Source of the DNA: a virus
IMG/VR virus record: IMGVR_UViG_3300048592_001384
Span: 1-25,405 of that record
Length of the DNA stretch: 25,405 bases
Strand: one strand, 5' to 3'
Positions within the stretch are counted from its first letter, which is position 1; every line of letters begins with the position of its first letter. Made by a program: the position numbers and the translations under genes. The notes under the pieces were generated by a model that was not told the DNA's origin, did not search any database, and was given only the letters and a program-made list of their open reading frames with translations. This document shows, piece by piece, positions 1,277 to 15,086 of the stretch.

Positions 1277-1456
1277 CTAGAGCAGCGCCGTCTGCCCACG
1301 GGCGCGCTTTGCCAGCGCCCTGTCGACCTGACGCTCGAGACGTCGTGATGCCTCAAGGGCCTCGATGTGATCGCCCGGTTCGCGCCTTACAGCGAAGAAA
1401 TGGCGCTGCGCCGCGCGCGTCTGGCAGACGAGATCGAGCAGTTCGGAGTCGGTCAT
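1277..1456 (-). CDS. 59-aa hypothetical protein, helical
   Basis: A 59-aa ORF starting MTDSELLDLVCQ, with charged helix-forming sequence (EALEASRRLERQVDRALAK) that could be a short coiled coil. Its ATG overlaps the stop of the large ParB-type gene (ATGA), and GAGG sits 4 nt before the start codon. It is followed after 2 nt by the next 59-aa gene. The tight packing and good ribosome binding site support it as a real gene. No function is recognised; a small DNA- or protein-binding accessory factor is possible but unsupported. Confidence 0.7.
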   Translation of the reverse strand: MTDSELLDLVCQTRAAQRHFFAVRREPGDHIEALEASRRLERQVDRALAKRARGQTALL

Positions 1457-3339
1457 GCAGCCTCGTCATCCTGCTGATCGCCGACAGCCGCCGCGGCCGC
1501 AGCATCCGCCCAGGCATTCGAACCAGGGCCCTTGTAGCTCGGCGTGCGCAAAGGCTTCGGCAGCCAGGCCTTCGGCGTCAGCTCCCTCACCGCCATCTCG
1601 ACCAGGTCCTTCTTCTTCTTCGACGGCGTGACGCCGGCAATCGCCGCCTCGCCGAGCGCTGCGGCAAGGCTCTCGCGCGGCATGCGCTTGTAGAACTCGG
1701 CGTCGGGCAGCCAGTGTGCGGCGACGTCAGGATCGAAGGCGTCGATGATGGGCCGCAACGCCTCGAGCATCGCGGCGTCATACTTGAGCAGCGGCGCGAT
1801 GCTGAGGGCGATGGCCTGGTCGAGGATCTCGCTACCGTGAAGAGCGTCGAACACCTCGACGATGGCGCAGGAGTGCGGATCGTGCTGCAGCTTGTCCATC
1901 ATTTCGGCATGAGCCGCGGCGACGTCCTTGCCGATGTCGGATAACCGGCGCTGCGGAGCGTCCAGTATGAAGCCCTCTGGTTTGGCGAACTCGCTGAGGT
2001 TCATCAGCATGGCCGCGGCCAGGCGCAATGCCTTCGCTGGTGCAGCCAAGATTGACCATTGCATGGCATGGGTCATCGCCGTCGCCATCTCCGCCTGCAG
2101 CGCGCCGGTGAAATCTGCCTCGGCCTCCGGTTCGACCTTGCGCACCGGCGAAGAGTCGCCCTCGCCACCGCTCGCCGTCTGCTTGGAAAGCTTCGCCTCC
2201 TTCTTCGCGGCGGCAGGTTTCATCATGCCGCAGGTAACGGTGATCTCGCTGTATTCGCGGCGCACCACCACGCCGGATTTCTTCTTCTGGGCGTCGGTGA
2301 AGAAGTTGCCGGCCAGCTGCTCGAGCTCGGCCTTGGCGGCGATGATCTTGTCCTGCAGCTGCTCTTCCGCTTCGCTATCCTCGGTCTTCCGCCATTCCGC
2401 GTCCAGCCGCTTGATTTCGGCCTTGAGCGCGTCTGCCCGTGCCTTCTGCTCTTTCGACAGGCTGCGCTTGCCCTCGGGCTTCAGCCATGGCCAGCGCCGG
2501 GTCTTGTGGGTATGGGCTTTATCCATCTCGAGGATGACGAAGCCCCAGCCCTCATCGAGCCAGGCTTTCTCGTCGGCCTTCAGCTTCTGCTGAAACAGCT
2601 TGTTCAACAGCTTGCCATCGGCCAGCCAGGCATTGTTCGAGAACAGGTCCTCGTCGACGGCGCCGCCGGCGGCCCTGTAGGCGTCGATCCCGACATAGGC
2701 AGCCTCGGGTGCGTCCGCCGCGATCCGCGCCTTGGAAAACTCTTTCTTGATTTGCCAGCTCTCGCGTACTCCCTGCTTCCAGAGCTTGAGCGCCTGGGCG
2801 GGGTCGGGCAGCAGCGTGTAGGCCTGCGCATCCTCAAGCCCGATCTCGCCGGCCTTGAGGCCCGCCACAATCTCCTTCGGCAGCTTGCCGATGGCGAGCC
2901 GCTGGCGCACACGGCGCAGGGGAATGCCGAAGCGCGCGGCGATGTGATCCGGCGTCATGCCCTGCGACACCAGGTCAGTAAAGTCCAGCGCCTCGTCCGC
3001 CGGGTGAAGGTCCATCCTGGTGATGACGGTCGCCAGCGAAAGCGACATCGCCTCGGCGTCGTCGAGCTCGCGGATGTAGGCGGGGACTGGGTGATCGTGC
3101 GGAAGCTTTCCCGACTCGGCCAGAGACTTCATGGCGCGCAGCCGGCGGCCGCCGTCGACCGGCTCATAGCCGCGCTCCGACGGCCGCAGCAACAGTGGCT
3201 GGCCAAGATCCTGCACGTCGATCGTGGCGGCGAGCTCGCCGACGTCTGTCTCGGTGTCGCGCCGGGCGTTTATTGCAGGGTTGTAGTAAATGTCGCTCAG
3301 CGCGACGTAGTCGAGGCGGGAAGTGTCCTGTTCGGGCAT
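1453..3339 (-). CDS. ParB/RepB/Spo0J-type protein, 628 aa
   Basis: A large ParB-fold protein. Residues about 12-75 form the ParB N-terminal domain, with an NPAINAR segment (20-26) and GGRRLRA (63-69) in the place of the family's nucleotide-binding arginine box. Residues about 126-155 form a helix-turn-helix of the KorB/ParB type (SQGMTPDHIAARFGIP). A lysine/glutamate-rich coiled-coil-like region lies at about 285-345, followed by a long region of unknown fold and an alanine-rich acidic tail. At 628 aa it is roughly twice the length of a chromosomal ParB. No ParA ATPase is visible in the window, so it may act as a DNA-binding regulator, a CTP-dependent clamp or a nuclease rather than in classical partition. 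The ATG at 3339 has AGGA 9 nt upstream. It lies in the leftward operon with the integrase downstream. Confidence 0.9.
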   Translation of the reverse strand: MPEQDTSRLDYVALSDIYYNPAINARRDTETDVGELAATIDVQDLGQPLLLRPSERGYEPVDGGRRLRAMKSLAESGKLPHDHPVPAYIRELDDAEAMSLSLATVITRMDLHPADEALDFTDLVSQGMTPDHIAARFGIPLRRVRQRLAIGKLPKEIVAGLKAGEIGLEDAQAYTLLPDPAQALKLWKQGVRESWQIKKEFSKARIAADAPEAAYVGIDAYRAAGGAVDEDLFSNNAWLADGKLLNKLFQQKLKADEKAWLDEGWGFVILEMDKAHTHKTRRWPWLKPEGKRSLSKEQKARADALKAEIKRLDAEWRKTEDSEAEEQLQDKIIAAKAELEQLAGNFFTDAQKKKSGVVVRREYSEITVTCGMMKPAAAKKEAKLSKQTASGGEGDSSPVRKVEPEAEADFTGALQAEMATAMTHAMQWSILAAPAKALRLAAAMLMNLSEFAKPEGFILDAPQRRLSDIGKDVAAAHAEMMDKLQHDPHSCAIVEVFDALHGSEILDQAIALSIAPLLKYDAAMLEALRPIIDAFDPDVAAHWLPDAEFYKRMPRESLAAALGEAAIAGVTPSKKKKDLVEMAVRELTPKAWLPKPLRTPSYKGPGSNAWADAAAAAAVGDQQDDEAA

Positions 3340-8158: not shown

Positions 8159-8168
8159 GGGATTGGTC

Positions 8169-8963
8169 ATGGCAGACTTCAACTGGACAGAGGAGCGGGT
8201 CGAAACCCTGATCGCCCTGGTGAAGGACGGGCTATCGGCAACCGAGATCGCAAACATGCTCGGCTGTGGTTCACGCAACTCCGTATGCGGTAAGATAATG
8301 CGGCTGCGCGATGCTGGCCGAATCGATGGCCCGCGCACATTCCAGAGATCTCAAACCTGCACACGGGCGCCGCGCGGTCACCGAATCCCCGGGCTTGCCC
8401 ATGTGCCGCTGATCAAGGCGCGCCTGGGTGAGGGCCGCAACGATCGTGAGATCGCCGACGAAATCGGACTCAAGCCGGATGACATTCGCTACGTCCGCCG
8501 CATCAAGGGCTTGCAGGCAAACATCAAGACGCTTCCTCCGCCCGCATACGCTAACGAAGTTGCGAAGCTTGTGACGGCCGGAAAGACCGACCGACAAATC
8601 AGTGAAGTTCTTGGGATTACCCCCTGGCAGGCGCGCGGCGAGCGGCGGCGGCAGGGGCTGGCAGCTCCTGTGACTAACAAGCAACGGGCGGTGACGACGA
8701 TTGTCAAGGGGGATCCCGGCGCGAAGGTCGCCATCGTCTTCGCCGAAGGGTTCATGGGGCAGCGCTCGCGCGTCGGCCTCATCGACCTTGGGCCCGGCCT
8801 CTGCCACTTTCCGATCGACCAGCAGAATGGCCCTGTTCGCTACTGTGGCGACCTGACGGCCGAAGGGCAGACCTACTGCGCGCATCATGCGGCGCGCTGC
8901 TACATGCCCACCCAGCGGATGAAGCCGCTGAACCCCAGCCACGTCTGTTCGGCGAGGCGCTGA
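8169..8963 (+). CDS. GcrA-like regulator with three HTH repeats
   Basis: A 264-aa protein of the GcrA family. GcrA is an alphaproteobacterial cell-cycle regulator that binds RNA polymerase sigma70 and acts at methylated GANTC promoters. Residues 4-48 form the GcrA N-terminal HTH (FNWTEERVETLIALVKDGLS, SRNSVCGKIMRL). The C-terminal part (about 195-247) has the family pattern LCHFPI, RYCG, TYCAHHAARCY with C212, C226, C237 and H240. Between them are two further HTH-like repeats, about 80-115 and 129-164, each with a G-x-DR(E/Q)I-x-LG-like core. Ordinary GcrA is about 170 aa, so this is enlarged by these repeats. The ATG at 8169 is chosen over the TTG at 8163 because AGGGGA lies upstream at good distance. 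The stop overlaps the next start (TGATG). Confidence 0.85.
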   Translation: MADFNWTEERVETLIALVKDGLSATEIANMLGCGSRNSVCGKIMRLRDAGRIDGPRTFQRSQTCTRAPRGHRIPGLAHVPLIKARLGEGRNDREIADEIGLKPDDIRYVRRIKGLQANIKTLPPPAYANEVAKLVTAGKTDRQISEVLGITPWQARGERRRQGLAAPVTNKQRAVTTIVKGDPGAKVAIVFAEGFMGQRSRVGLIDLGPGLCHFPIDQQNGPVRYCGDLTAEGQTYCAHHAARCYMPTQRMKPLNPSHVCSARR

Positions 8964-9160
8964 TGCCGACCATTCACGAGAAGCTCAAGCTTGCGTACGT
9001 CAGCCTGCACCCGGACGACGGGCTGATGCTGACCGTGACGACCGCGCGCGGCGACCAGAAATTCGACATGCAGCTCACCCCGAAGATGACTGCCATGTTG
9101 CTTAATCAGCTCACGCAGGGTGCGCGGGACGCTCTCAGCAACATGGAGAAGTGGCCATGA
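8963..9160 (+). CDS. 65-aa hypothetical protein
   Basis: A 65-aa ORF starting MPTIHEKLKLAYVSLHPD. It contains two beta-strand-like stretches (LMLTVTTARGDQKFDMQL) and a C-terminal helix (KMTAMLLNQLTQGARDAL). GGCGAGG lies 5 nt before the ATG. It overlaps GcrA-like upstream (TGATG) and the ParB-like gene downstream (ATGA). Function unknown. Confidence 0.7.
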   Translation: MPTIHEKLKLAYVSLHPDDGLMLTVTTARGDQKFDMQLTPKMTAMLLNQLTQGARDALSNMEKWP

Positions 9161-9990
9161 GCTCGCTTCGCCCGCTCGTTAAGCCGGAGGTGAACCTGGC
9201 CCAGCCCAGGCCCGCGGGCCGGCCGCCGACGCTGGACTTCCTGCCGCTCGCAAAGCTGCGGATCGACGACAGCTACCAGCGCACGATCGAGCGCAAGGGC
9301 TTGGCCACCATCGTCCGGATCTGCAACGAGTTTGACTGGAACCGCTTCGCGCCGCTGATCGTGGCGCGGATTGCCGGAAAGGACGAGCACTACGCCGTCA
9401 TCGACGGCCAGCATCGCGCTACCGCGGCGCTGTTGCGCGGTTTTGACCTGGTGCCGTGCGCGATCGTCGATGCGTCCGAACTGGAGCAACCGGCCATTTT
9501 TGCGGCGGTGAATGGCAACGTCACACCGGTGACGATCTTTCAGCTGTTCAAGGCTGCTCGTGCAGCTAAGGCTCCTTGGGCTGTGGCCATCGATCAGGTC
9601 TGCGCCGATGCCGGCATCATTCCGTTGCTGTACCCAAAAGCGAGACGTGAAATCAAGCCGTTTGAGACCATGGCGATCGGCACCTTGCGGCAGCAGATCA
9701 TTCGGTTCGGTGAGAGTGACGTTGCAGCCGCACTGAAGCGCGCGAGGCAGCAACCGAGAGCCGCCGAGCCGGGCTTCTGGAACTCTGCCTTAATCAACTA
9801 CGCCGTAGCGGAGTGGCGCGTCGGCCAAGGTAAACGCGCCGAGCCGTCAGCAGCGGGGTCGGACTCTTCGCACACCATGGCCTCCCGTATCCGCGACCTG
9901 AAGGCGAAGGGATATTCCCGGTTTGCGATCCAGGCGGCGCTGCGCGTCAAGCTTGCTGACATCGAGGCAGCACTGGATTGCAGGGCATGA
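9157..9990 (+). CDS. ParB/Srx-fold protein (second ParB-like)
   Basis: A 277-aa ParB-like protein. Residues about 27-105 form the ParB/sulfiredoxin fold, with the signature DGQHRATA at 83-90 and a preceding strand HYAVI. Residues about 230-277 look like a small helical DNA-binding end (ASRIRDLKAKGYSRFAIQAA). Related phage proteins are annotated as ParB-like nucleases or transcriptional regulators. The ATG at 9157 is preferred to the GTG at 9151: it overlaps the previous stop by ATGA and has GGAG 8 nt upstream. There is no ParA partner nearby, so partition is not implied. It is unrelated in length and domain order to the 628-aa ParB-type protein of the leftward operon. Confidence 0.85.
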   Translation: MSSLRPLVKPEVNLAQPRPAGRPPTLDFLPLAKLRIDDSYQRTIERKGLATIVRICNEFDWNRFAPLIVARIAGKDEHYAVIDGQHRATAALLRGFDLVPCAIVDASELEQPAIFAAVNGNVTPVTIFQLFKAARAAKAPWAVAIDQVCADAGIIPLLYPKARREIKPFETMAIGTLRQQIIRFGESDVAAALKRARQQPRAAEPGFWNSALINYAVAEWRVGQGKRAEPSAAGSDSSHTMASRIRDLKAKGYSRFAIQAALRVKLADIEAALDCRA

Positions 9991-11121: not shown

Positions 11122-11396
11122 TGCCGCAGGCTGCCACCCGGCAATCGACCTATTCCGAGATCCTGGCGTGTCCGGTGTTCCGGGAGGGCTATGAGGAAAT
11201 CTGGCGCGCCGAAGCGACGGCGATCGATGTTCGCTGGAGTGACGAGGAACAGCTTTCCTATGAGCGCGGCCGCCAGTTCGGACTGTATGTCCTGACCTCG
11301 GAGAGCCAGCGGGTGCCCCTGCAGAAGGGCGCGATGCCCCACCCGCGCGCCGTGGTGCTGCTGATGATGGCCTTCCGCGGAGGCGACGTGCTGTGA
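11121..11396 (+). CDS. 91-aa hypothetical protein
   Basis: A 91-aa ORF starting MPQAATRQSTYSEILACP. The middle has a helical segment SDEEQLSYERGRQFGLYV, and the C-terminus RAVVLLMMAFRGGDVL. It overlaps the upstream stop (TGATG) and the downstream primase start (GTGA). It is probably a small replication-region accessory protein; function unknown. Confidence 0.7.
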   Translation: MPQAATRQSTYSEILACPVFREGYEEIWRAEATAIDVRWSDEEQLSYERGRQFGLYVLTSESQRVPLQKGAMPHPRAVVLLMMAFRGGDVL

Positions 11397-12595
11397 TCCG
11401 TGATCCCGCATTCGAAGAATGGATCGAGGAGGCGAGGGGGTTGCCGATCGTTCGCGCGCTCGACCTTGTCGCGCAGCACCATGCGATCTCACGCAAGACC
11501 CGCTTCGTCGGACCCTGCCCGGGTTGCGGCGGCACTGACAGGTTCTCGCTGAACATCAAGAAGAACATCTTCTGGTGTCGCAAGAGTGCAGAAGGTGGCG
11601 ATGCAATCGCGCTTGCGCGCCATGTCCATGGCTGCGAGTTCCTTGACGCAGTCGAGATGCTCACCGGCCGGCCTGCTCCCGGGCGCACCGTTTCGGAGGA
11701 AGAGCGTGAGGCGCGCGCGCGCCGCGTCGTCGAGCTCGAGGAAAAGCGCAAGGCCGAGGCCCAGCGGATCGCCACCGAGGAAAACGAGTTTCGCTCCCGC
11801 GAGATCGACCGTGCCCGCAAGATATGGAAGGCCGCCGGCCCGATGGAGGGCTCGGTCGCCGAGTCCTATCTCCGGCACCGCGGCGTCACGGCGCCGAAAG
11901 GTGCCAAGCTGCGCGCGGCCTCGGAGCTGCCCTACTGGCACAACATCGGCGGCGAGTGGAAGTCGATCCATGCCGGCCCCGCGATGGTCGCAGCCATTCA
12001 GGGGCGGGACGAGCGCTTCATCGGGTGCCATATCACCTGGATCGACGCAAGGCTCTCCACGCGCTCAGGCAAGGCGCAGATCGTGCATCCCACGACTGGC
12101 GAGATCCTCGATGCCAAGAAGGTGCGGGGCTCGCAGAAGGGCGGGCATATCCATCTGGGTGGCGTCGCCGTCGCGCCACGGCGTTTCGTGGTGGGCGAGG
12201 GGATCGAGACCGTGCTGTCGGTTCAGGTGGCGGAGAGCGCGGCAGGGCGGTCAGGGTTCACGCTTTATTGGTCGAGCGTCAACCTGCACAATCTCGGCGG
12301 CAAGAGTGCCGGCAGCGTCCCGCATCCGAGTCTGACGATCACAGACAGCAAGGGGCGGACCCGGGCGCAGCGCGTGCCGGGGCCCGACCCCGATCTCGAC
12401 GATACTGCCGTGATCGCACCGCCGGCCGAGGCCGACGACATCCTGCTGTTGGGCGATGGCGACAGTGACCTCTTCACCACGCGAAACGTGCTGTGCCGCT
12501 TTGCCGCCCGCTGGGATCGGCTGGGCCGGACGATACGCGCGGCTTGGGCGGATGAGGGCTCGGATTTCAACGACATGCTCAGGGGCGCCGCATGA
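11393..12595 (+). CDS. Phage primase, CHC2 zinc finger plus Toprim
   Basis: A 400-aa DNA primase that would make RNA primers for phage replication. The N-terminal zinc-binding region has C42, C45 and C62 (CPGCGGTDRFS, IFWCRKS). The usual fourth cysteine is a serine (S65), a variant also plausible in functional relatives. A charged helical linker (about 100-155) follows. The Toprim domain holds VVGEGIETV (about 265-275) and the acidic metal site D355, D357, D359 in LLLGDGDSD. Start is GTG at 11393, overlapping the previous stop (GTGA). It overlaps the helicase gene by ATGA. Primase and helicase are separate genes here, unlike the fused P4 alpha protein. Confidence 0.9.
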   Translation: MIRDPAFEEWIEEARGLPIVRALDLVAQHHAISRKTRFVGPCPGCGGTDRFSLNIKKNIFWCRKSAEGGDAIALARHVHGCEFLDAVEMLTGRPAPGRTVSEEEREARARRVVELEEKRKAEAQRIATEENEFRSREIDRARKIWKAAGPMEGSVAESYLRHRGVTAPKGAKLRAASELPYWHNIGGEWKSIHAGPAMVAAIQGRDERFIGCHITWIDARLSTRSGKAQIVHPTTGEILDAKKVRGSQKGGHIHLGGVAVAPRRFVVGEGIETVLSVQVAESAAGRSGFTLYWSSVNLHNLGGKSAGSVPHPSLTITDSKGRTRAQRVPGPDPDLDDTAVIAPPAEADDILLLGDGDSDLFTTRNVLCRFAARWDRLGRTIRAAWADEGSDFNDMLRGAA

Positions 12596-14247
12596 CCGAA
12601 CCGCGGGAGCCTCACTTGCGCATCGTCTCGACGATCGAGGCTGCTGAAACGCTGGCCACAGGATCCAGTCCCGCACCCTCTATGAAGGGCAGCGGGAAGG
12701 ACAGTCCCGGGCGGGAGTTGCCTCCGTCGGGGGGTAATCGAGGGGGAGCGGGGGGCGGCGGAATTGAGTGGAGCATCGATAGTGCGTGCGCATGGCTGCC
12801 GCGCACGGATCTTGGCAACGCAGAGCGCTTCGTGAAGCGGCACGGAAAGGACTTCCTGTTCGTACCCGAGTGGGGCTGGCTGGCGTGGGACGGCAAGCGC
12901 TGGAACGCTTCTGAGGCCGACGCCATCCTCGCCCGCGCCGTGCACGAGACGATCCGCGCCATTGCGCAGGAGGCCGATGCACTCGCCGGCACGCGCGACG
13001 ACGTGATGATCGACCCCCTCAAGCGGGTGATGCTCTCCGACAAGCTGCGCGGCTGGTGCCTGGCATCACAAAGTGCAGCGCATATTACGGCCGTCGCCCG
13101 GCTCGCCCAGTCCTATCTCTCGGCTCAAAGCAGCTCCTTTGATGCGGAGGCGACTGCCCTGAACGTGCTGAACGGCACCCTGCGCTTCGCAAAATCGGAT
13201 CACGCCGACTATGTCATCTTCCACCCGCATCGGCGCGAAGATAGGATGACCAAGCTGGCTCCGGTGCAATATGATCCGGAGGCGACCTGCCCGTCCTATG
13301 ACAAGTTCCTCGCCCGTGTGCAGCCTGACGACCTGATGCGGCGGCATCTGCATGCCTGGGGCGGTCTGTCGCTCACCGCCTTGCAGGTGGCGCGCCTGGC
13401 GTTCTGGTACGGCACCGGGCGCAACGGCAAGTCAACTCTGGTTGACGCGTGGTCGCACGTGCTCGGCGATTATTCCCAGACCATTCCGATCGAGAGCTTT
13501 CTCGACCAAGGCCGCTCACGGCGCGGCGGCGAGGCGTCTCCTGATATCGCGTCGCTTCCCGGCGTGCGCTGCCTGCGCACCTCGGAGCCTGAAAAGGGCG
13601 CAAAGCTGGCGGAAAGCCTCGTCAAGCTGGTGACCGGCGGCGAGCCGTTGCGCGCACGGCACCTCAACCGGGACTTCTTCGAGTTCCGCCCCAGTTTCAA
13701 GCTCACCATGCAGGGCAACTACCGGCCCGAGGTGCGCGGCACGGATGAAGGCATCTGGGCCCGCATCCTGCTGGTGCCGTGGACGGTCATGATTCCCGCA
13801 GAGGAGCGTGACACCGGCTTGCCGCTCAAGCTGCAAGCCGAAGCCTCGGGGATACTCAACCGGCTGCTCGACGGGCTGCGCGACTATCTGGACAACGGCC
13901 TCCTGCCGCCGCATCAGGTGCTGACGGCGACGGCCGAGTATCGTGACGACTCCGACCCCATTGGACGTTTTCTCAAAGAGTGCACCGTTGCTTGCGATCC
14001 GCCGCCGCCGGACCGGCCGCAGGAAGAACGCCGCGAATCGGGATCCGAGATGTACCGGATCTATGTCGCCTGGGCCAAGGCCTATGGCGAGCGACCATGG
14101 GGCACGAAGGCTTTCTCCCGCGGCCTGCAGGATCATGGCGTGCAGCGGGTCAAGAACTCGGGGATCTTCTACCGGCATATCAGGCTCACCAAGACCGCGG
14201 CCGACTTCGCAGGGCAGGATTATGGGGACACTGACCACGAAAAGTGA
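12592..14247 (+). CDS. D5/P4-type SF3 replicative helicase
   Basis: A 551-aa protein of the phage/plasmid D5-P4 primase-helicase C-terminal family. Residues about 1-60 are a Gly/Pro/Ser-rich linker. About 60-240 form the D5_N region (FLFVPEWGWLAWDGKRW, SDKLRGW). The superfamily-3 helicase core has Walker A GTGRNGKST (274-282) and an acidic Walker-B-like SEPEKG (331-336), then QGNYRPEVRG and the family's RILLVPW segment. The C-terminal end (about 475-545) resembles a winged helix that could bind origin DNA. In phage P4 the equivalent part recognises iterons. The iteron array starts just after the stop codon, which makes it the best candidate target. Confidence 0.9.
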   Translation: MTEPREPHLRIVSTIEAAETLATGSSPAPSMKGSGKDSPGRELPPSGGNRGGAGGGGIEWSIDSACAWLPRTDLGNAERFVKRHGKDFLFVPEWGWLAWDGKRWNASEADAILARAVHETIRAIAQEADALAGTRDDVMIDPLKRVMLSDKLRGWCLASQSAAHITAVARLAQSYLSAQSSSFDAEATALNVLNGTLRFAKSDHADYVIFHPHRREDRMTKLAPVQYDPEATCPSYDKFLARVQPDDLMRRHLHAWGGLSLTALQVARLAFWYGTGRNGKSTLVDAWSHVLGDYSQTIPIESFLDQGRSRRGGEASPDIASLPGVRCLRTSEPEKGAKLAESLVKLVTGGEPLRARHLNRDFFEFRPSFKLTMQGNYRPEVRGTDEGIWARILLVPWTVMIPAEERDTGLPLKLQAEASGILNRLLDGLRDYLDNGLLPPHQVLTATAEYRDDSDPIGRFLKECTVACDPPPPDRPQEERRESGSEMYRIYVAWAKAYGERPWGTKAFSRGLQDHGVQRVKNSGIFYRHIRLTKTAADFAGQDYGDTDHEK

Positions 14248-14250
14248 TCC

Positions 14251-14280
14251 CTGCCTCCCGTCGGGAAGCAGGCAGTTTTT
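14251..14280 (+). terminator. Terminator after the helicase gene
   Basis: CTGCC (14251-14255) pairs with GGCAG (14271-14275), enclosing TCCCG/CGGGA (14256-14260 and 14262-14266) with a 4-nt bulge, followed by five T. It starts 4 nt after the helicase stop codon and includes the first iteron copy. Confidence 0.55.
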
Positions 14281-14512
14281 GCCTCCCGTGTTCAAGCCTT
14301 TGAAAACAAAGGCAACGGGAGGCACGGGAGGCACGGGAGGCAGTTTTGCAATGAAGCCTCATGGGAAAAATATTTCCATGAGATGGAACCCCCTTTCTGC
14401 TTCCCGTCCCTCCCGTTCTCATTCATCCCATTGATACAGCGGAGAATTATCTAATGTTTATCTTCCCGTCTGCCTCCCGTCTGCCTCCCGTAAGAAAGAA
14501 TGATCCTCCCGT
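14252..14512. repeat. Iteron array GCCTCCCGT, candidate replication origin
   Basis: Seven exact copies of the 9-mer GCCTCCCGT: plus strand at 14253, 14281, 14472 and 14483; minus strand at 14315, 14324 and 14333, the last three directly abutting. Degenerate copies lie at 14399 (GCTTCCCGT), 14408 (CCCTCCCGT), 14461 (TCTTCCCGT) and 14504 (TCCTCCCGT). The copies at 14470-14491 form an 11-bp tandem, CTGCCTCCCGT twice. A perfect GCCTTTG-AAAA-CAAAGGC hairpin (14296-14313) is bracketed by TGCCTCCCGT and ACGGGAGGCA. AT-rich stretches lie at about 14361-14376 and 14446-14465, the kind of sequence that melts at an origin. The array lies directly behind a D5-type helicase. Origin function is inference from layout. 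Confidence 0.7.
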
Positions 14513-15086
14513 GGTGGATTATAGAAGGGAAACCACGGCCTGGGCCGCTGTGGTGTGGGCCTATGCAGACGAGCTCGTGCTGGCGGCATCATCGGTCGGC
14601 GGCTCGAATTTCCCTTCGCCTGGTCTTGCGATGAGCGGCCTCGGCCGCGAACGCATCAGCGGCGGTCTCATCAATGGCTGGTATGAGCCCCACCCGGACG
14701 CGATGTTGATCCATGCCAAGCTGTCGGAGTGGTTCGTCCATGACAGCTATGGCCTGTGCCAGGTGATGGCTCACGCGGAAAGGCGCAAGCGTCTTCCGCC
14801 CGAGATATCCCTGCCGAGGATAAAGGTGATGCCGGTGTATGACCGTCAGGGGAATGTGCTGGTTGAGCGCAGGCGCGCGCACCGCAGCGCGAGGGTCATC
14901 ACGGAGTATTGCCTGATCGATTATGAAGGCATCGACCCTCGCCACGCAGACCGCCGTGAGAAGGCATGGCGCGACATGCATGCGATGTTCATCGCCTTCC
15001 TCGATGTCATGCAAGGCTTCTCGCTTGCCAAGTGGAAGATCACGGGCAGGGGCTTGACGAATGTCTGCGAATCATTGACAAGGTGA
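14454..15086 (+). CDS. 210-aa hypothetical protein
   Basis: A 210-aa ORF starting MFIFPSASRLPPVRKN. GGAG lies 9 nt before the ATG. The first 20 codons are part of the iteron array, so the N-terminus (SASRLPPV) is dictated by the repeats. The body contains AYADELVLAASSVGG, a repeat-free basic region (LPRIKVMPVYDRQGNVLVER) and a C-terminal helical part (RDMHAMFIAFLDVMQG). It lies between the replication and structural genes, where antitermination (Q-like) or late regulators are often found, but no motif supports that. Function unknown. Confidence 0.7.
   Translation: MFIFPSASRLPPVRKNDPPVVDYRRETTAWAAVVWAYADELVLAASSVGGSNFPSPGLAMSGLGRERISGGLINGWYEPHPDAMLIHAKLSEWFVHDSYGLCQVMAHAERRKRLPPEISLPRIKVMPVYDRQGNVLVERRRAHRSARVITEYCLIDYEGIDPRHADRREKAWRDMHAMFIAFLDVMQGFSLAKWKITGRGLTNVCESLTR

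What the first reader, a model, noticed from the sequence alone, without database searches (positions are those of the whole stretch)
14252..14512. Dense two-orientation iteron array beside a D5-type helicase: candidate phage origin
The 9-mer GCCTCCCGT occurs seven times exactly within 240 bp, plus at least four near-copies, in both orientations. It shows two regular spacings: three abutting 9-bp units (14315-14341) and an 11-bp tandem (14470-14491). A perfect 7-bp hairpin with AAAA loop sits between oppositely facing copies, and AT-rich stretches lie nearby. Phage P4 replication starts at iterons bound by its alpha primase-helicase; here a related helicase ends 4 bp before the array. The array also supplies the first codons of the following gene. 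I do not know a described origin with this repeat.
Basis: partly seen in the sequence, partly recalled or inferred. Interest (0 to 1): 0.72.

Follow-up and report, generated by a model that had tools for sequence, protein, structure and literature searches.

The report
Phage replication origin beside its helicase
A cluster of short repeated DNA words just after a phage helicase gene is very probably the site where that helicase starts copying the phage genome; the same arrangement occurs in well over a hundred related phages, where the word and the helicase's DNA-reading loop change together.

Summary
The repeats are real. Seven exact GCCTCCCGT/ACGGGAGGC units plus near-copies lie at 14253-14512, starting 5 bp after the stop of a D5-type helicase; 200 shuffles never gave more than one per 260 bp. 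Relatives show it is a conserved element. In 186 of 270 loci holding a related helicase, the first ~450 bp downstream contain a strong iteron array, against 1 of 411 control segments. A scan for a tandem iteron by DNA alone found 52 viral contigs; all 38 with a D5 helicase have the hit 2-632 bp behind it, and none of the 14 others shows a comparable two-orientation array. Architecture is constant: two convergent clusters around a ~76-bp spacer. Iteron sequence differs between loci, and of 469 helicase columns the best single predictor is residue 524, in the wing of the C-terminal winged helix (held-out loci 43/45). The array persists while primase type and downstream gene change. Best reading: the replication origin, bound by the helicase's wing, working like P4 crr/ori and SaPI/PICI origins but in a full tailed phage. 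Binding and replication were not shown experimentally. The AAAA-loop hairpin is not conserved, and the window lacks the alternating purine-pyrimidine spacer typical of relatives.

The parts
11393..12595 (+). Toprim/DUF7146 DNA primase, separate gene upstream of the helicase
   Evidence: Pfam DUF7146 4e-22, Toprim_3 4e-5; phrog_510 DNA primase 4.5e-63
12592..14247 (+). D5-type helicase, proposed self-loading initiator
   Evidence: Pfam D5_N 1.3e-28; phrog_1156 8.7e-116; AF2 pLDDT 87.8; profile matches PDB 7ola at 3e-17
14032..14187 (+). C-terminal winged-helix domain, residues 481-532, proposed origin-binding domain
   Evidence: AF2 secondary structure; nearest folds RFX1 DNA-binding domain 1dp7 and P4 origin-binding domain 1ka8; weak Pox_D5 match, below Pfam cut-off
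14152..14166 (+). codons 521-525, wing tip of the winged helix, whose residues covary with the iteron sequence
   Evidence: residues 524 and 521 rank 1 and 2 of 469 columns against iteron base 4
14253..14289 (+). iteron cluster A: exact units 14253-14261 and 14281-14289
14296..14313 (.). perfect 7-bp hairpin with AAAA loop; not conserved in L004, probably incidental
14315..14341 (-). iteron cluster B: three abutting 9-bp units
14342..14398 (.). central spacer with AT-rich imperfect palindrome CATGGGAAAAATATTTCCATG at 14360-14380; in most relatives this place holds an alternating purine-pyrimidine tract
14399..14416 (+). iteron cluster C: two abutting one-mismatch units, facing cluster B
14415..14464 (.). 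AT-rich stretch (34% GC), candidate melting region next to cluster C
14461..14512 (+). iteron cluster D: 14461 (two mismatches), 14472, 14483 (exact), 14504 (one mismatch); overlaps the start of the next gene
14454..15086 (+). downstream ORF (210 aa, unknown function) whose first codons are made of iterons; belongs to one of several unrelated families found behind such arrays

Best explanation
The array is the phage's replication origin. Copies of the D5 helicase bind the 8-9 bp iterons through the C-terminal winged helix, whose wing reads the variable bases. Binding to the convergent clusters B and C, which face each other across a ~57-76 bp spacer, would place two helicase rings in opposite orientation. 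The spacer or the AT-rich DNA beside cluster C would melt, the rings would load on single strands, and the neighbouring primase would start bidirectional synthesis. Shown by sequence: the array, its location behind this helicase gene, its architecture, and its covariation with the helicase wing. Inferred: binding, ring loading, melting and initiation.
For: Array strongly enriched behind the helicase: 186/270 loci versus 1/411 control segments; 84% among the 152 closest helicases. A DNA-only search leads back to the helicase in 38/38 helicase-bearing contigs. Convergent B/C clusters in 103 of 107 loci, mostly 8-12 bp tandem spacing, spacer median 76 bp. Iteron base 4 covaries best with wing residue 524 of 469 columns: G524 in 43/43 loci of the T class; held-out loci 9/9 T with G and 34/36 C without. 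At least four supported independent switches, none contrary. Predicted C-terminal fold is nearest to RFX1, which reads DNA with its wing (PMC4333399), and also matches the P4 origin-binding domain 1ka8. Array constant while the primase changes (separate Toprim, fused DnaG/Toprim, fused Prim-Pol) and while the downstream gene falls into three large unrelated families. Cultured phages AmM-1, Mae-JY28, Pthi1, RcapNL and T25 show arrays in the same place. Positive control: the method recovers P4's known type-1 repeats behind alpha.
Against: No binding or replication data. The sign test on independent switches is not significant by itself (p about 0.125). The window's own clade (WIN, L003, L004) has G at aligned position 524 yet carries the C-type iteron; its wing reads KNSG rather than SNG, so the code is not one-to-one. 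GC skew shows no turn here. RR1-A has a relative of the helicase and no array directly downstream. The C-terminal fold matches are weak by E-value (1dp7 0.016, 1ka8 0.15).
Confidence: 0.84

Rival explanations
1. The array is a cis-acting accessory site (like P4 crr) bound by the helicase, controlling copy number or helping initiation, while strand opening happens at a second site elsewhere.
For: In P4 the repeats directly behind alpha are annotated as crr and the rep_origin lies several kb away.
Against: No second cluster of the iteron exists in the 25-kb window, only isolated copies. Among relatives the rest of each locus has about 0.1-0.6 core sites per 530 bp against 5-13 in the array. The window record may be a fragment, so a second site outside it is not excluded.
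Confidence: 0.1
2. The repeats are operator sites of a transcription regulator that controls the genes downstream.
For: The array lies between early (replication) and late genes and overlaps the start of the next gene.
Against: Downstream genes fall into three large unrelated families plus many singletons while the array stays. No sigma-70-like promoter was found in 14150-14600. The iteron covaries with the helicase wing.
Confidence: 0.04
3. The array is a partition site (centromere) for the ParB-like proteins of this element.
For: Two ParB-like genes are encoded in the window, and plasmid centromeres can be iteron arrays.
Against: The array tracks the helicase, not ParB, and its sequence covaries with the helicase wing. 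Presence of ParB in the relatives was not tested.
Confidence: 0.02

Closest known systems
Phage P4 alpha protein with its crr and ori
   Same: D5-family helicase with a C-terminal winged-helix origin-binding domain (1ka8); ~8-bp repeats in both orientations, directly downstream of the gene in crr; tandem spacing of about 9 bp
   Different: Here the primase is a separate Toprim-type gene; iteron sequence differs (GCCTCCCGT versus TGTTCACC); no second array was seen; the element is a tailed phage with its own terminase and portal, not a satellite
SaPI/PICI replicons (pri-rep-ori)
   Same: Origin immediately 3' of the initiator helicase, two iteron sets flanking a putative melting region (PMC6092414); C-terminal domain of Rep recognises iterons (PMC7581432); helicase profile matches PDB 7ola, named only DNA primase in that listing
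   Different: Carried by full phages and prophages; spacer in most relatives is an alternating purine-pyrimidine tract rather than simply AT-rich
SCCmec Cch2 helicase and its AAGTG iterons
   Same: D5-type helicase whose isolated C-terminal domain binds repeats directly downstream of its gene, shown biochemically (PMC7581432)
   Different: Only three iterons there; different partner polymerase/primase; not a phage
SV40 large T antigen at the SV40 origin (from own knowledge, not tested)
   Same: Helicase that binds inverted short G-rich repeats and assembles two opposed hexamers
   Different: T antigen uses an N-terminal, non-winged-helix origin-binding domain; no homology claimed

Membership tests
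Iteron-type origin of a D5-family self-loading initiator helicase (P4/SaPI-like) | D5-family helicase encoded in cis | tested here: met
   Pfam D5_N 1.3e-28 and PHROG primase/helicase families
Iteron-type origin of a D5-family self-loading initiator helicase (P4/SaPI-like) | C-terminal winged-helix origin-binding domain | tested here: met
   AF2 models; fold matches 1dp7, 1ka8 and C962R, prob 1.00 / 0.80 / 0.99 but weak E-values
Iteron-type origin of a D5-family self-loading initiator helicase (P4/SaPI-like) | Iteron array immediately 3' of the initiator gene | tested here: met
   First unit 5 bp after the stop codon; conserved in relatives
Iteron-type origin of a D5-family self-loading initiator helicase (P4/SaPI-like) | Two iteron sets flanking a putative melting region | tested here: met
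   Convergent clusters B and C around a spacer in the window and in 103 of 107 loci
Iteron-type origin of a D5-family self-loading initiator helicase (P4/SaPI-like) | Initiator binds its cognate iterons specifically | tested here: inconclusive
   Only indirect: iteron-wing covariation; no binding assay possible
Iteron-type origin of a D5-family self-loading initiator helicase (P4/SaPI-like) | Segment supports autonomous replication with helicase and primase | not testable with these tools
   needs a plasmid assay
Phage-inducible chromosomal island (PICI) | Satellite that depends on a helper phage's structural genes | tested here: not met
   Window encodes its own terminase large subunit, lambda-type portal and S49 protease
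P4 ori/crr | Type-1 repeat TGTTCACC | tested here: not met
   Iteron here is GCCTCCCGT; P4 repeats read as TGTTCACC

The most novel reading that the evidence does not exclude
A large, so far undescribed family of origins in full-size tailed phages, mainly of alphaproteobacteria, in which the wing tip of a D5 helicase sets the iteron sequence through a readable residue-to-base code, and in which an alternating purine-pyrimidine (Z-DNA-prone) tract of the central spacer takes part in strand opening. Divergence of the code would keep co-resident prophages from cross-initiating each other.
Probability: 0.4. Interest if true: 0.75.

Novelty: new variant of a known kind. Interest (0 to 1): 0.62.

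Why it matters
It gives a place and a mechanism for replication start in a broad group of prophages with D5 helicases, and over a hundred natural initiator-iteron pairs from which binding rules can be read and tested. [quoted passage not shown] Swapping a few wing residues between natural variants would test directly whether the wing decides origin specificity, and whether different iterons let related prophages coexist in one cell.

Tried and rejected
Exact triple-repeat search in viral contigs: besides the near relative it found L010, which reads as a collagen-like coding repeat, and L008, not followed further; neither looks like an origin array. Rfam search of the region: nothing. Promoter scan: none; two terminator-like stems on the minus strand, one of which is an inverted iteron pair. 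GC skew: uninformative. Hairpin 14296-14313: not conserved, rejected as a functional part. Primase as control for covariation: too few loci with a homologous separate primase (37, only 3 of the T class) to be informative. Direct BLASTN of the array against cultured phages: no meaningful match, as expected for short iterons. Sequence search of the C-terminal domain against PDB: no match; only the fold comparison gave leads. Test whether co-resident prophages avoid sharing iterons: 4 of 4 scorable pairs differ, but chance predicts that with p about 0.24. Literature: no description of this repeat as a phage origin found in the held open-access library; subscription papers, such as those on the Sfi21 origin, were not available.

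Full report
What is there. The window is a 25,405-base record of IMG/VR. It encodes a Toprim/DUF7146 primase (11393-12595), a D5-type helicase (12592-14247) and, further on, a tail protein, terminase large subunit, lambda-type portal and S49 protease, so it is part of a tailed phage or prophage and not a satellite. Directly after the helicase stop lie seven exact GCCTCCCGT units in both orientations with four near-copies between 14253 and 14512. 200 dinucleotide shuffles of the window never put more than one exact unit into 260 bp.

Is the array tied to the helicase? Relatives of the helicase were collected from viral contigs and from bacterial genomes. In each, a motif was sought de novo in the 480 bp starting 30 bp before the helicase stop. 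A strong array (score at least 40) was found in 186 of 270 loci; the same procedure on segments 1.5 kb downstream or 2.5 kb upstream gave 1 of 411. Among the 152 helicases closest to the family profile the rate is 84%, falling with distance. Three near relatives scored as lacking the array were read: in L014 and L102 iterons resume behind an inserted small ORF, and L062 keeps a shorter array. In the opposite direction, a 16-base tandem iteron was searched by DNA alone: of 52 viral contigs, 38 encode a D5 helicase and in all 38 the hit lies 2-632 bp behind the end of the helicase match. The other 14 have 2-4 sites, or in one case (L215) a one-strand low-complexity run.

Architecture. In 107 loci with well-resolved cores, 103 have a cluster of GGGAGG-type sites facing a cluster of CCTCCC-type sites across a spacer of median 76 bp (interquartile 70-82), with tandem sites mostly 8-12 bp apart, about one helical turn, and further clusters outside. 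The spacer of most relatives holds an alternating purine-pyrimidine tract: longest run median 16 versus 6 in 507 control segments, at least 12 in 66% versus 1%. AT-rich DNA flanks cluster C on both sides. The window itself lacks the alternating tract (longest run 4) and has an AT-rich imperfect palindrome at 14360-14380 instead.

Which protein reads it? The iteron differs between loci: CCTCCC, CCTTCC, CCTTGC, CCTCGC, CTCTCC and rarer types. Mutual information between helicase columns and the fourth iteron base, with sequence weighting and correction for column entropy, ranks residues 524 and 521 first and second (468 columns; 469, z 7.0 and 5.2). For the fifth base residues 523 and 521 lead. 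In the AF2 model strand 518-521, turn 522-524 and strand 525-528 form the wing of the C-terminal winged helix. G524 occurs in 43 of 43 loci of the T class and 5 of 86 of the C class; three of those five are the window clade, whose wing reads KNSG instead of SNG. Loci not used in the first alignment follow the rule in 43 of 45 cases. On a tree built without the C-terminal domain at least four supported switches of the iteron are independent and none goes against the residue; this is too few for significance alone (p about 0.125), so relatedness explains part of the raw correlation. The closest solved fold to the C-terminal domain is the RFX1 DNA-binding domain, and P4's origin-binding domain is also among the best (weak E-values). 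RFX1 is the known case in which the wing, not the recognition helix, reads the major groove (PMC4333399). The two lines, covariation in the wing and an RFX-like fold, were obtained independently.

Excluding other partners. The primase differs between loci while the array stays: separate Toprim (window), fused DnaG/Toprim (L030), fused Prim-Pol (L141). The gene behind the array belongs to three large unrelated families and many singletons. No promoter or known RNA element was found at the array. These facts speak against an operator for the downstream gene and against a primase-specific site.

Known relatives of the mechanism. P4 carries its type-1 repeats in crr, starting about 46 bp behind the alpha stop, and again in its ori; the procedure used here recovers the crr repeats without prior knowledge. 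In SaPIs and PICIs the origin is immediately 3' of rep, with two iteron sets flanking a putative melting site (PMC6092414). SCCmec Cch2, a D5-type helicase, binds repeats behind its gene with its isolated C-terminal domain (PMC7581432). Cultured phages AmM-1, Mae-JY28, Pthi1, RcapNL and T25 have arrays at the same place. The element therefore works like these origins; it is not a PICI, and its repeat is not P4's.

Judgement. The origin interpretation is well supported by comparative evidence and untested by experiment. The main open alternative is that the array is a crr-like accessory site. New here are the extent of the family in full phages, the covariation of iteron and wing, and the alternating purine-pyrimidine spacer in relatives. 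The idea that iteron divergence allows co-resident prophages to coexist is only suggested (4 of 4 pairs, p about 0.24).

Noticed in passing
central spacer of 103 related loci, e.g. L015, L128, L213: Alternating purine-pyrimidine tract (GTGTGCGCGCATGCGC type) between the convergent iteron clusters, median run 16 nt against 6 in controls; absent from the window itself.
   Followed up: partly
L014:7490-7912 and L102:7499-7960: A small ORF, which looks like a GIY-YIG-type protein (impression only, not searched), sits directly behind the helicase; CCTCCC/GGGAGG sites resume after it.
   Followed up: partly
L028/L031, L225/L248, L238/L249, L235/L250: Pairs of D5-helicase loci in one genome carry different iteron cores in 4 of 4 scorable cases, possibly for compatibility; not significant.
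   Followed up: partly
L030, L141 and window helicase operons: The primase partner of the D5 helicase switches between separate Toprim, fused DnaG/Toprim and fused Prim-Pol while the origin stays.
   Followed up: partly
window 1453-3339 (-), 9151-9990 (+): Two ParB-like genes in one phage record.
   Followed up: no
window 8163-8963 (+): GcrA-like cell-cycle regulator domain with an inserted middle part, in a phage (Pfam GcrA 5.7e-24).
   Followed up: no
L307 (Rhodobacter phage RcapNL), record 40169-40489: The iteron array lies between the helicase gene and the annotated cohesive end of the genome.
   Followed up: no
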